From Tannerella sp. (lineage in GTDB: Bacteria; Bacteroidota; Bacteroidia; Bacteroidales; Tannerellaceae): a DNA stretch of 47,132 nt. Position numbers and translations under genes: made by a program. The notes beneath the pieces were generated by a model. That model worked only from the letters and a program-made list of their open reading frames with translations. It had not been told where the DNA came from and searched no databases. Numbering within the stretch: the stretch's first letter is position 1; each line of letters begins with the position of its first letter. This document shows positions 32,160 to 40,704 of the stretch, piece by piece. The stretch covers positions 1 through 47,132 of the forward strand of contig JAISCL010000070.1 in assembly GCA_031265585.1 (NCBI GenBank), given 5' to 3'.

Positions 32160-32194
32160 GCCACGGAAACGGACAGGATGTTCGATACCGGACA
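32160..32194 (+). promoter_or_regulatory. Two activator-type binding sites upstream of the adaptor gene
   Basis: TGTTCG-ATAC-CGGACA (32179-32194) and, 19 bp upstream centre to centre, GCCACG-GAAA-CGGACA (32160-32175). Both carry the CGGACA half-site of the perfect inverted repeat found before the TolC gene. They are likely targets of the sigma-54 regulator at 42287. Confidence 0.6.
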
Positions 32195-32238
32195 CTGCCG
32201 CATATCACAACCGGCGATTTATCAAACGGTTATCATTC

Positions 32239-32254
32239 CGGCATACTCTTTGAA
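32239..32254 (+). promoter_or_regulatory. Sigma-54-type promoter of the export operon
   Basis: CGGCATACTCTTTGAA aligns position for position with the TolC promoter element TGGCATACTATTTGCC (GG at -24; GA instead of GC at -12). It ends 26 bp before the ATG, as in the TolC case. Confidence 0.6.
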
Positions 32255-32279
32255 CAGATAACGGCAAAACGCAAGAAAG

Positions 32280-33524
32280 ATGGATCGGGAAATACCAAAA
32301 GAAGTACGGCGGCAAACGCTCCGCCGGCAGATTATAAAGGCAGGAGCCGGCGTAGCGGGGTTCATCGGCCTCATGGCGTTCATCCTGTCCATCCTGCAAC
32401 CGGCGGTCAGGCGTAAAGACCTGCACCTCTCCACCGTCGACCGCGGGGTCATCGAGGTATCCGTCAATGCTTCGGGGAAAGTTGTCCCGGCATTCGAGGA
32501 AATCATCAATTCCCCCATCCATTCACGCATTGTTGAGGTATATAAAAAGGGCGGCGACGCGGTCGACAGCGGGACTCCGATACTGAAACTGGATCTGCAG
32601 TCGGCTCAAACCGATTACAACAAGCTGCTGGATGAGGAACAGATGAAGCGGCTGCAACTGGAACAGCTGCGGCTGACCGGCCGGGGCAAGCTTTCGGAAA
32701 TGGAAATGAAACTGAAAATCTCGCGCATGGAGCTGAACCGCAAAGAAGTCGAACTCCGCAACGAGCGCTACCTGGACAGCCTCGGCGCCGGAACAACCGA
32801 CAAGGTGCGTCAAACGGAACTGAGCTACAACGTAGGACAGCTCCAGCTGAGCGAAGACGAACAGAAATACATCAACGAGCAGGCGCTGGCGGAGGCGGAA
32901 CTTAAAGTACGGGAACTGGAACTGAGTATCTTCCGCAAGGGCCTGGCCGAAATGAAGCGCACGCTGGACGACGCGCAGATACGTTCGCCGCGCAAAGCGA
33001 TCCTGACCTGGGTAAACAGCGAAATAGGCGCACAGATACAGCCGGGCAGCCGCATCGCCGTCGTTTCCGACCTTTCCAGCTTCAAGATCGAAGGGGAAAT
33101 CGCCGATACGTATGGCGACCGCATCGCCGCGGGAAGCAAAGCGGTCGTAAAAACGGGCAGCGAGAAGCTGAACGGCGTCGTGAGCGAAGTAACGCCCCTG
33201 TCCCGGAACGGCGTCATCTCGTTTTCCGTCCGGCTCGAGGAAAGCAGCCACAGGCGCCTCCGTTCCGGCCTCAAGACCGACGTTTATGTGATGAACGCCG
33301 TCAAAGACGACGTGATGCGGATTGCCAACGCCTCCTACTATACGGGAAAAGGCGCGTATGAACTGTTCGCCGTAAACGGCGGTCAGCTCCTCAGGCGCAG
33401 GGTACAGCTGGGCGACAGCAACTTTGAATACGTAGAAGTCATCAGCGGACTGGAAGAAGGAGACGAAGTAGTCGTCTCCGACATGAGTTACTACAAAGAA
33501 AAAAGCAAACTGAAAATTAAATAA
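32280..33524 (+). CDS. MacA/HlyD-type periplasmic adaptor protein
   Basis: A 414-aa membrane fusion protein. One N-terminal membrane helix lies at about 20-42 (AGAGVAGFIGLMAFILSILQ). A half-lipoyl strand follows, NASGKVVPAFEEIINSPIHS. A long alpha-hairpin at about 110-230 reaches toward the outer-membrane channel. The second lipoyl half is DAQIRSPRKAILTWVNSEIG, then beta-barrel and membrane-proximal domains (GLKTDVYVMN, VISGLEEGDEVVVSD). It links the ABC permeases to the TolC-type protein at 40730 for export across the envelope. It is the first gene of a six-gene run, with a 1-bp gap to the ATPase, and is read from the sigma-54-type promoter. Confidence 0.92.
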   Translation: MDREIPKEVRRQTLRRQIIKAGAGVAGFIGLMAFILSILQPAVRRKDLHLSTVDRGVIEVSVNASGKVVPAFEEIINSPIHSRIVEVYKKGGDAVDSGTPILKLDLQSAQTDYNKLLDEEQMKRLQLEQLRLTGRGKLSEMEMKLKISRMELNRKEVELRNERYLDSLGAGTTDKVRQTELSYNVGQLQLSEDEQKYINEQALAEAELKVRELELSIFRKGLAEMKRTLDDAQIRSPRKAILTWVNSEIGAQIQPGSRIAVVSDLSSFKIEGEIADTYGDRIAAGSKAVVKTGSEKLNGVVSEVTPLSRNGVISFSVRLEESSHRRLRSGLKTDVYVMNAVKDDVMRIANASYYTGKGAYELFAVNGGQLLRRRVQLGDSNFEYVEVISGLEEGDEVVVSDMSYYKEKSKLKIK

Positions 33525-33525
33525 A

Positions 33526-34191
33526 ATGATTAAATTAACAAACCTGGAAAAAGTGTACCGTACAAAGGAAATCGAAACGGTAGCGCTGGAAAATGTAAAC
33601 ATACATGTCCGGAAAGGAGAATTTCTTTCCATCATGGGGCCTTCGGGCTGCGGCAAATCCACGCTGCTGAACATTATGGGACTGCTCGACAGCCCGACGA
33701 CCGGAACCGTGGAAATCGACGGAACCGCCACCCTCCACATGAACGACCGCAAACAGGCGGCCTTCCGCAACCGGCAGCTGGGGTTTGTCTTCCAGAGCTT
33801 TCACCTGATCAACTCCCTGAACGTGCTTGACAACGTCGAGCTGCCCCTGCTCTACCGCAAAACCGGCGCTTCCGAACGGCGCAAAAGGGCCAAAGAAGTA
33901 CTGGAAAAAGTAGGCCTGAGCCACCGCATGAAACACTTCCCGACGCAGCTCTCCGGCGGACAGTGCCAGCGCGTAGCCATCGCACGCGCCATCATCGGGA
34001 ACCCGAACATCATCCTGGCCGACGAGCCGACCGGCAACCTGGACAGCAAAATGGGAGCCGAAGTAATGGACATCCTCCACGCCCTCAACGAACAGGACGG
34101 ACGCACCATCGTGATGGTAACCCACAACGAAGACCAGGCCAAACGCACCGACCGCACGATCCGCTTCTTCGACGGACGGCAGATACAGTAA
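33526..34191 (+). CDS. ABC transporter ATP-binding protein (LolD/MacB type)
   Basis: A 221-aa ATPase. Walker A is GPSGCGKSTLLNIMG at about 38-52, Q-loop FVFQSFHLINSLNVLDNVEL, signature LSGGQCQRVAIARAI, Walker B IILADEPTGNLDS, H-loop VMVTHNEDQAK. This subfamily drives mechanotransmission-type export with FtsX-fold permeases, not transport through the membrane itself. It must serve all four permeases that follow. The first permease starts 4 bp after its stop. Confidence 0.97.
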   Translation: MIKLTNLEKVYRTKEIETVALENVNIHVRKGEFLSIMGPSGCGKSTLLNIMGLLDSPTTGTVEIDGTATLHMNDRKQAAFRNRQLGFVFQSFHLINSLNVLDNVELPLLYRKTGASERRKRAKEVLEKVGLSHRMKHFPTQLSGGQCQRVAIARAIIGNPNIILADEPTGNLDSKMGAEVMDILHALNEQDGRTIVMVTHNEDQAKRTDRTIRFFDGRQIQ

Positions 34192-34195
34192 AAAG

Positions 34196-39655: not shown

Positions 39656-39685
39656 TTGCCGGCTGAAAAAAAAGTCCTATATTTG
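39656..39685 (+). promoter_or_regulatory. Bacteroidetes promoter of the plug-repeat gene
   Basis: TTG (39656-39658), 19-bp spacer, TATATTTG (39678-39685), then ATG at 39724. This ordinary promoter separates the gene from the sigma-54-driven units on either side. Confidence 0.7.
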
Positions 39686-39723
39686 CACCGGAACAATTCA
39701 CACACTTAAAACATACCCGTACA

Positions 39724-40575
39724 ATGAAAAAAAACAGCTCCTATCCCGCAAAAACAGGCCTGTCCCTGTTCGTATTAACCCTCCTCCTGTGGACATTTGC
39801 AGCGCCGGAATCCGTGCATGCACAAAAAAAAGCCACCGCATCCCGGACATCCGCCGGAAAACAGTACACGATCACATTCGCAGACGGCGCCGCCACTTCG
39901 ACCATAAAAGGATCGGCAGGCCCTCCCCTGCTGATTGTTGACGGAAAAAAATCCGACAAAAAAATAGAAGAACTGGATGCCGGAGACATCCTGACCGTTT
40001 CCGCCCTGGTCAACGAGTATGCCATTGCAGTATACGGCAAAGAAGCCGAAAACGGCGTTTTCGAAATAATGACAAAATCCAGCCCTCGAAGGGCTGACGC
40101 TTCCGTTGTAAATGAGATTAACCGGATAAAATCCGAAAATTTAAAACTGACGGGAGATCTGCTGATCCTTGTAGACGGTGAACAGTATGATGAGAAGAAC
40201 CTTGACCGGATCAAGCTTAAAGATGTTGCCAACCTTTCCATTTCAAAGGATACGGCATTCACGAAACAGTACGGGGAAGAAGAAAAAAACGGCGTCATCC
40301 GGATCACAACAAAAAAATCCGGCCTTTCCGGGGATGACATTCCCGTTGTAAATGAGACTGACCGGGCAAAATCCGAAACGTCAAAACCGGCGGGAGATCC
40401 GCTGATCTTTGTAGACGGTGAACAGCATGACAAGGAGTACCTTGCCCGGATCAAGGCTGAAGATGTTGATTCCTTTTTCATTTTAAAGGATACAGCAGCC
40501 ACGAAACAGTACGGGGAAAAGGGAAAAAACGGTGTCATCCGGATCACAACAAAAAACGGGAAAAAAGCGGAATAA
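39724..40575 (+). CDS. Secreted protein with three TonB-plug-like repeats
   Basis: A 283-aa protein with signal peptide (MKKNSSYPAKTGLSLFVLTL, cleavage near VHA-QK). Then three copies of a 50-55-residue unit: PLLIVDGKKSDKKIEELDAG, DLLILVDGEQYDEKNLDRIK and DPLIFVDGEQHDKEYLARIK. Each closes with a G-x-x-x-x-N-G-V-x-x-I-x-T-K strand. This is the plug-domain motif of SusC-like TonB-dependent receptors (P-L-x-x-V-D-G ... L-K-D-A-A-A-T-x-x-Y-G-x-x-x-x-N-G-V-I-x-I-T-T-K), but without any barrel. Repeats 2 and 3 are a recent 240-bp DNA duplication. It might act as a periplasmic partner or decoy of a receptor, or bind the exported substrate. Function is unknown. Confidence 0.8.
   Translation: MKKNSSYPAKTGLSLFVLTLLLWTFAAPESVHAQKKATASRTSAGKQYTITFADGAATSTIKGSAGPPLLIVDGKKSDKKIEELDAGDILTVSALVNEYAIAVYGKEAENGVFEIMTKSSPRRADASVVNEINRIKSENLKLTGDLLILVDGEQYDEKNLDRIKLKDVANLSISKDTAFTKQYGEEEKNGVIRITTKKSGLSGDDIPVVNETDRAKSETSKPAGDPLIFVDGEQHDKEYLARIKAEDVDSFFILKDTAATKQYGEKGKNGVIRITTKNGKKAE
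40101..40575. repeat. 240-bp tandem duplication inside the plug-repeat gene
   Basis: 40101-40340 and 40341-40575 are near-identical over long stretches (CCGTTGTAAATGAGA, GTAGACGGTGAACAG, CGAAACAGTACGGGGAA), giving repeats 2 and 3 of the protein. The period is a multiple of 3, so copy number could change without breaking the frame. Confidence 0.85.
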
Positions 40576-40609
40576 AACCGCCACCGCCCGAAGCATCCCG
40601 CCACCCGCA

Positions 40610-40644
40610 TGCCGTAAAATGAACACCCTGTCCGGAAACGGACA
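40610..40644 (+). promoter_or_regulatory. Activator-type binding sites upstream of the TolC-like gene
   Basis: Perfect inverted repeat TGTCCG-GAAA-CGGACA (40629-40644). A weak second copy TGCCGT-AAAA-TGAACA (40610-40625) lies 19 bp upstream, the same 19-bp offset as the pair before the adaptor gene. Confidence 0.65.
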
Positions 40645-40688
40645 CTTCCGGAAAAGAAAAACCGCCTGTTTTCAACGTCTTACATCTG

Positions 40689-40704
40689 TGGCATACTATT
40701 TGCC
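40689..40704 (+). promoter_or_regulatory. Sigma-54 promoter of the TolC-like gene
   Basis: TGGCATACTATTTGCC fits TGGCAYRnnnnTTGCW at 15 of 16 positions, including GG at -24 and GC at -12 with exact spacing. It ends 26 bp before ATG 40730. Confidence 0.8.

What the first reader, a model, noticed from the sequence alone, without database searches (positions are those of the whole stretch)
32160..40704. Matched sigma-54 control of adaptor and TolC genes, 8.4 kb apart
Before the TolC-like gene there is a perfect TGTCCG-N4-CGGACA repeat centred 52.5 bp before a near-consensus -24/-12 element (TGGCATACTATTTGCC), which ends 26 bp before the ATG. Before the adaptor gene TGTTCG-N4-CGGACA is centred exactly 52.5 bp before CGGCATACTCTTTGAA, again ending 26 bp before the ATG. 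Each has a second site 19 bp further up. An NtrC-family regulator and kinase are encoded next door. Identical geometry at two promoters strongly supports a dedicated self-contained regulon.
Basis: partly seen in the sequence, partly recalled or inferred. Interest (0 to 1): 0.75.

Follow-up and report, generated by a model that had tools for sequence, protein, structure and literature searches.

The report
Matched sigma-54 switches for efflux genes
Two distant genes of one bacterial efflux pump carry the same precisely spaced on-switch, kept in related species, so one nearby sensor and regulator pair probably turns the whole pump on; it is a well-supported new example of a known kind of gene control.

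Summary
It is not chance. In 61 genomes the composite pattern occurs 23 times, with 0 in the backward control; all 23 lie in the window's genus, 22 before adaptor, TolC or ABC-ATPase genes of this transporter type and 1 beside gene fragments. Close adaptor orthologs carry the site in 16 of 16 rows, TolC orthologs in 8 of 10, distant homologs in 0 of 12. The regulator and kinase instead follow a housekeeping-type promoter motif. A KSB1 genome has a similar cassette and operator pair one helical turn further out. Best explanation: a dedicated NtrC-type two-component system switches on a MacB/TolC-type pump through sigma-54, probably with DNA bending. Against: 5 of 15 genomes with a close adaptor show no close regulator in the assembly. 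Nothing was measured; signal and substrate are unknown.

The parts
32170..32175 (+). distal half-site CGGACA, 19 bp above the proximal palindrome (adaptor promoter)
   Evidence: right half at 19 or 20 bp in 26 of 30 promoters
32179..32194 (+). proximal activator site TGTTCGATACCGGACA (adaptor promoter)
32220..32232 (+). IHF-like site TATCAAACGGTTA, 9 of 9 to the recalled consensus WATCAANNNNTTR
32239..32254 (+). -24/-12-like element CGGCATACTCTTTGAA (adaptor promoter)
32280..33524 (+). periplasmic adaptor (HlyD/MacA-like)
33526..34191 (+). ABC ATPase (LolD/MacB-type)
34196..35455 (+). MacB_PCD/FtsX permease P1 (matches first half of the ADOP model)
35452..36723 (+). permease P2 (matches second half of the ADOP model)
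36747..38048 (+). permease P3 (first-half type)
38060..39352 (+). permease P4 (second-half type)
40620..40625 (+). distal half-site TGAACA (TolC promoter)
40629..40644 (+). proximal activator site TGTCCGGAAACGGACA (TolC promoter)
40670..40682 (+). IHF-like site TTTCAACGTCTTA, 8 of 9 to the recalled consensus
40689..40704 (+). -24/-12 element TGGCATACTATTTGCC (TolC promoter)
40730..42202 (+). TolC-family outer membrane channel
42252..42259 (+). housekeeping-type TATATTTG motif, 35 bp before the regulator ATG (motif recalled)
42287..43651 (+). NtrC-type response regulator (receiver, AAA+ sigma-54 activation domain, Fis-type HTH)
43676..44965 (+). histidine kinase; TM-like segments within 1-27 and at 33-51; PAS and ATPase domains above cut-off, HAMP and HisKA below it

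Best explanation
A dedicated two-component system switches on a tripartite MacB/TolC-type efflux pump through sigma-54. Shown from sequence: two matched promoters, one before the adaptor-ATPase-permease run and one before TolC, each with a proximal TGTYCG-N4-CGRACA palindrome, a distal half-site 19 bp up, an IHF-like site 19 bp before the -24 element, and a -24/-12-like element. Inferred: the phosphorylated NtrC-type regulator binds as stacked dimers at the two sites, a DNABII-family protein bends the DNA between, and the AAA+ ring opens the sigma-54 polymerase at both promoters together. The regulator and kinase are kept at a basal level by their own housekeeping promoter. The kinase probably senses in or near the membrane, because its two TM-like segments are separated by about five residues. 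Signal and substrate are unknown.
For: Composite site: 23 hits, 0 in the backward control, in 61 genomes, all at genes or gene fragments of this transporter type. Close orthologs 16 of 16 and 8 of 10, distant homologs 0 of 12. Palindrome arms 87-94% identical against 42-50% in the spacer (its rows were picked with a loosened palindrome pattern, but among the close orthologs that dropped only those with another spacing or no site). IHF-like site best at -19 in 24 of 30; 7 of 9 or better there in 0 of 7 other sigma-54-like elements of the genus. The regulator has the sigma-54 activation domain and HTH_8. rpoN and DNABII genes are present. TAnnTTTG lies before 13 of 16 regulator genes. A KSB1 genome has the cassette and an operator pair 19 bp apart that 0 of 5000 base shuffles match.
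Against: No transcript, binding or mutant data. 15 of 30 elements lack the -12 C. Of 15 genomes with a close adaptor, 10 show a close regulator (one partial) and 5 do not (G001, G006, G016, G019, G032; G016 rated 99% complete). TolC of G035 has no site. LYRR in the regulator's HTH is not exclusive: relatives L143 (43%) and L148 (41%) have SLYRRMEKY, yet no site was found in their loci. The KSB1 promoter scores only 4 of 9 for the IHF consensus at -19. The 30 promoters are related by descent and were selected at 51.5-53.5 bp. The control for the IHF-like site is small (7).
Confidence: 0.85

Rival explanations
1. The palindromes are bound by a different regulator (a repressor or another sigma-54 activator of the cell), and the neighbouring two-component system controls something else.
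For: Five genomes keep adaptor and site without a close regulator in the assembly. The own genome has 18 matches to the regulator, some perhaps receiver domains only, so other activators exist.
Against: The site is upstream of and phased with the -24 element, as for an activator. It goes with this cassette, and a KSB1 relative with a 52% identical regulator keeps a similar operator pair.
Confidence: 0.1
2. The -24/-12-like elements are misread housekeeping promoters, and the conservation reflects something else such as an mRNA leader.
For: The conserved TTTG also occurs in the Bacteroidetes housekeeping -7 motif (recalled TAnnTTTG), and 15 of 30 elements lack the -12 C.
Against: In the window TAnnTTTG is absent within 150 bp of the adaptor and TolC starts but present before the regulator and the plug gene.
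Confidence: 0.04
3. The conserved bases before the -24 element are not an IHF site but a base preference of the polymerase or part of the activator contact.
For: The site lies close to the promoter, no DNABII protein of this organism is known to prefer it, and the KSB1 promoter scores 4 of 9 at -19.
Against: It fits the recalled 13-bp IHF consensus (5 of 30 exactly; base-shuffle mean 0.10), and 0 of 7 other sigma-54-like elements score 7 of 9 or better at -19.
Confidence: 0.25
4. Matched sites are a by-product of a duplication of one promoter within the cassette.
For: The spacers of the two promoters are 52% identical in the window and 70% in G003, 45% in G033 and G034, which hints at a shared origin.
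Against: Both promoters kept palindrome and spacing while their spacers diverged, so common origin does not replace selection.
Confidence: 0.05

Closest known systems
Sigma-54 promoters with an NtrC-family activator and IHF bending (general model, recalled; IHF at Desulfovibrio vulgaris orp operons, PMC3897727, seen as search listing and start of abstract)
   Same: -24/-12 element, upstream palindromes, AAA+ activator, IHF-like site between
   Different: Distance was 51.5-53.5 bp at all 24 close orthologs with a site when 49.5-55.5 was allowed, and the IHF-like site stands next to the -24 element
[quoted passage not shown]
   Same: FtsX-like permeases under predicted sigma-54 promoters in Bacteroidia
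   Different: That work ranks gene classes by promoter matrices; the passages seen give no operator, no cognate regulator and no geometry
MacAB-TolC tripartite ABC efflux pump
   Same: HlyD-type adaptor, MacB_PCD/FtsX permeases, LolD/MacB-type ATPase, TolC-family channel
   Different: ATPase is a separate protein; four permeases resembling split halves of the ADOP duplicated permease; predicted sigma-54 control
Darobactin exporter DarC/DarD (NCBIfam)
   Same: DarD is the best-scoring model for the ATPase, DarC the second for the adaptor
   Different: Far below the cut-offs (259.5 of 375 and 75.8 of 450 bits): not a member
ZraSR / AtoSC two-component systems
   Same: NtrC-type regulator with membrane kinase
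   Different: Below the equivalog cut-offs; the predicted target is an efflux pump

Membership tests
Sigma-54-dependent promoter | GG at -24 and GC at -12 with fixed spacing (recalled) | tested here: inconclusive
   GG and spacing met in both; GC met at TolC, but the adaptor has GA; C missing in 15 of 30 promoters
Sigma-54-dependent promoter | RpoN encoded in the genome | tested here: met
   PF04552 match at G000:C220, E 2.2e-48
Sigma-54-dependent promoter | transcription start about 12 bp after the element, loss without RpoN | not testable with these tools
   needs 5'-end mapping and a mutant
NtrC-family response regulator | receiver, Sigma54_activat AAA+ domain, Fis-type HTH | tested here: met
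   PF00072, PF00158, PF02954 above cut-offs
NtrC-family response regulator | binds the palindromes | not testable with these tools
   co-occurrence only
IHF-assisted sigma-54 promoter | IHF consensus between activator site and promoter | tested here: met
   9 of 9 and 8 of 9 in the window; best at -19 in 24 of 30; consensus is recalled
IHF-assisted sigma-54 promoter | a DNABII protein binds and bends there | not testable with these tools
   19 PF00216 matches in the own genome; which one, if any, is unknown
MacAB-TolC-type efflux pump | adaptor, ABC ATPase, MacB-type permease and TolC-family channel together | tested here: met
   Pfam matches above cut-offs
MacB proper | ATPase fused to permease, equivalog score | tested here: not met
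   separate ATPase; 218 of 966 bits
Darobactin exporter | DarC/DarD equivalog scores | tested here: not met
   75.8 of 450 and 259.5 of 375 bits

The most novel reading that the evidence does not exclude
The promoters are rigid, enhanceosome-like assemblies rather than loose enhancers: two activator dimers, a bending protein and sigma-54 polymerase are locked in one helical register, so distance may change only by about 1 bp or one full turn (KSB1, +10 bp). Operator and regulator travel together across phyla as one portable efflux-control module.
Probability: 0.35. Interest if true: 0.6.

Novelty: new member of a known kind. Interest (0 to 1): 0.45.

Why it matters
It links a specific sigma-54 activator to a specific MacB/TolC-type pump in the Bacteroidota, with a short operator that can be searched for. 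It also offers a natural set of promoters in which activator distance and bending-site position hardly vary, a good test bed for how strictly enhancer geometry matters at sigma-54 promoters. Finding the inducing signal would point to what these pumps export.

Tried and rejected
A larger own-genome regulon. With a fixed distance and up to 3 mismatches, four extra poor sites appeared (backward control 1). A later scan for strong -24/-12 elements gave 6 in the genome (backward control 14, so such elements alone mean little); one (G000:C142) carries the palindrome with one mismatch at 53.5 bp and scores 7 of 9 for the IHF consensus, but is followed by a short TolC remnant, so I read it as a decayed duplicate. 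One search missed it because its spacing was fixed, and because they allowed no mismatch; other weak sites could have been missed too.

One-mismatch palindromes alone (97 places, backward control 58) were too many to interpret; only the one at G000:C142 was followed.

An operator in the G056 cassette: its inverted repeat before the adaptor looks like a transcription terminator and has 4 mismatches; left as a lead.

The darobactin exporter label, suggested by the best ATPase model, fails the cut-off. The adaptor-kinase fusion in G047 is probably a deletion or assembly joint; that reading is inference. No structure was predicted: it would not decide between the rivals.

Literature: the rows listed showed no paper on this operator or this regulator-pump pairing; some searches listed only part of what they found (10 of 48, 15 of 90, 12 of 113, 12 of 17), and the library holds open-licence papers only. 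PMC3162934 (term search only) held none of the five terms asked.
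Full report
Observation. The 'second sites' are half-sites, not full palindromes. The adaptor element departs from the sigma-54 consensus (recalled) at the -12 C.

Surroundings. From the adaptor promoter run an HlyD-type adaptor, an ABC ATPase and four MacB/FtsX permeases; a gene with a SusC/RagA plug signature then precedes TolC; an NtrC-type regulator and a histidine kinase follow. P1/P2 and P3/P4 match first and second halves of the ADOP duplicated-permease model. 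The regulator's likely start is ATG 42287, not the TTG 42245 listed mechanically. A terminator-like hairpin lies between TolC and the regulator at 42216-42235 (38 such sites in the region, shuffle mean 21), so read-through is uncertain.

Is it more than chance? The bare palindrome is not rare enough to mean much. With the element at the right spacing the expectation is about 2e-4 per genome. In 61 genomes (own, 36 of the same genus, 24 of other families in the order) the exact composite pattern with a 43-46 bp gap gave 18 plus 5 = 23 sites in 14 genomes, all of the window's genus, and 0 in the backward control. Downstream genes: 12 adaptors, 7 TolC, 3 ABC ATPases of a paralogous cassette (one adaptor and one TolC run off the contig), and in G021 a permease fragment, where fragments of P4 and of an adaptor and a 24% adaptor-like gene were found.

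Ortholog test, not selected on the site. Protein searches gave 20 adaptor matches at E up to 1e-60 and 19 TolC matches at E up to 1e-90. TolC at 66% or more carries it in 8 of 10 (52.5 in 6, 51.5 in 1, 53.5 in 1); in G018 TolC follows a permease gene, and in G035 there is no site. One adaptor at 54% from another family (G047) has it with one mismatch. Distant homologs (45% or less) have it in 0 of 12, although two distant TolC genes (G002, G036) have a -24/-12-like element without the palindrome. In G017 adaptor and TolC are divergent with back-to-back sites; in G018 three palindromes 19 bp apart (one with a mismatch) stand between the adaptor and a divergent ATPase gene, with an element facing each.

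Footprint. Among promoters with the 44-bp spacer (15 adaptor, 6 TolC), palindrome arms are 87-94% identical on average and the spacer 42% (adaptor) and 50% (TolC). Those rows had to fit a loosened palindrome and element, which raises the arm figure; among close orthologs this dropped only G017 (adaptor), G009 and G023 (TolC; other spacings) and the two TolC without a site. Within the spacer a block stands out. For 30 promoters (18 adaptor, 8 TolC, 3 ATPase, 1 in G021; chosen as having the palindrome with at most one mismatch and the element 59-61 bp on, so 14 of the 39 homologs are left out as having no site), the IHF consensus WATCAANNNNTTR (recalled) fits 7 of 9 or better in 29, 8 or better in 16 and 9 in 5; base-shuffled spacers give means of 11.2, 1.7 and 0.1, and 0 of 2000 shuffles reach any observed value. 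The best fit is at -19 from the element start in 24 of 30. In a smaller set, elements TGGCAY-N5-TTGCH in the genus loci, 10 of 13 regulon promoters against 0 of 7 others score 7 or better at -19. The distal right half-site is at 19 or 20 bp in 26 of 30.

Who acts on it? rpoN is found in the own genome and in 56 of 61 overall. The regulator has all domains of a sigma-54 activator. Its HTH ends in ALYRR[LMI]xK[YF] in the 11 other full-length relatives of 57-83% identity aligned, except the paralogs of G009, G023 and G034 (63-64%), which have TLYRRLEKY. Several relatives of about 40% (L057, L061, L144, L145, L154, L173) have TLYNK; but L143 and L148 have SLYRRMEKY and no site was found in their loci, so the helix alone does not tell the operator. 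The regulator gene itself has a TAnnTTTG housekeeping-type motif (recalled) within 120 bases in 13 of 16 loci, against 0.045 expected from the window's average; in the window, adaptor and TolC have none within 150 bases. So sensor and regulator are probably present before the signal, and the pump is what sigma-54 induces. The kinase has two TM-like segments with about five residues between them, which suggests sensing in or at the membrane; that is inference.

Across phyla. I looked at the neighbours of six (L139-L144): the regulator stands beside matching ABC permease and kinase genes in Chitinophagaceae (57%), KSB1 (52%), Thermoanaerobaculales (51%) and Latescibacterota (52%), while L143 and L144 (43 and 41%) do not show that order. 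Of the four only the KSB1 contig reaches the adaptor promoter: TGTCCGCTCCCGAACG and TGTGCGATATTGAACA stand 19 bp apart, the second centred 62.5 bp before TGGCACGCTTCTTGGC, one helical turn further out; 0 of 5000 base shuffles of that upstream region give such a pair. Its score for the IHF consensus at -19 is only 4 of 9. Over all 80 loci (1.23 Mb) this was the only site under a loose criterion. One example is a hint, not proof, of cross-phylum conservation.

Against. Of 15 genomes with a close adaptor, 10 show a close regulator (partial in G033) and five do not (G001, G006, G016, G019, G032; rated 67, 81, 99, 59 and 60% complete). Most are incomplete and fragmented, but G016 is a real difficulty. 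The sites are related by descent, so counts overstate independence. No experiment was done. For these and the LYRR result I put the main explanation at 0.85.

Taxon. One genus member (G028) has a contig of the same length, 16,249 bases, and about the same regulator identity (69-70%) as JAIRLL010000171.1, labelled Tannerella sp.; that the window is a Tannerella relative is an inference from this.

Prior work. PMC12316311 (passages read) reports enrichment of predicted sigma-54 promoters before ABC-type antimicrobial-peptide transport permeases in Bacteroidia and calls this first evidence for the family. The idea of sigma-54 control of such pumps is therefore in print; the operator, geometry, IHF-like site and cognate regulator described here were not seen in the rows listed.

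Verdict. The finding is real and its interpretation is well supported by comparison. It is a new member of a known kind, with unusually strict geometry.

Noticed in passing
window 31828-32116: Intergenic array of about seven 41-bp units just before the adaptor promoter; function unknown.
   Followed up: no
L232 2405-2550 (G000:C142), minus strand: Decayed copy of the TolC promoter with an intact-looking site, followed by a TolC remnant and, 217 bp on, an ORF (932-2251) that by eye looks like an AAA-type ATPase and might be driven by it.
   Followed up: partly
window 39724-40575: A 283-aa protein with a SusC/RagA plug signature and a 240-bp internal repeat (about 1.9 copies); related pieces about 4 kb before TolC in L044 and L055; has its own TATATTTG motif.
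   Followed up: partly
elements of the 30-promoter set: The C of the -12 GC is missing in 15 of 30, mostly at adaptor promoters (12 of 18), so this sigma-54 may tolerate TTTG without C (tallied).
   Followed up: partly
L240 1318-2946 (G047:C210): Adaptor residues 1-290 joined to kinase residues 182-428 in one open frame; deletion or assembly joint likely.
   Followed up: no
G009:C159, G023:C17, G034:C255: A second cassette with its own 63-64% regulator and the same operator at 53.5 bp: two regulators sharing one operator in one cell.
   Followed up: partly
window 34196-39352: Four permeases look like two split copies of the ADOP duplicated permease.
   Followed up: no
L099 (G002) and L100 (G036): Distant TolC homologs with a -24/-12-like element upstream but no such palindrome: perhaps other sigma-54 activators with their own operators.
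   Followed up: no
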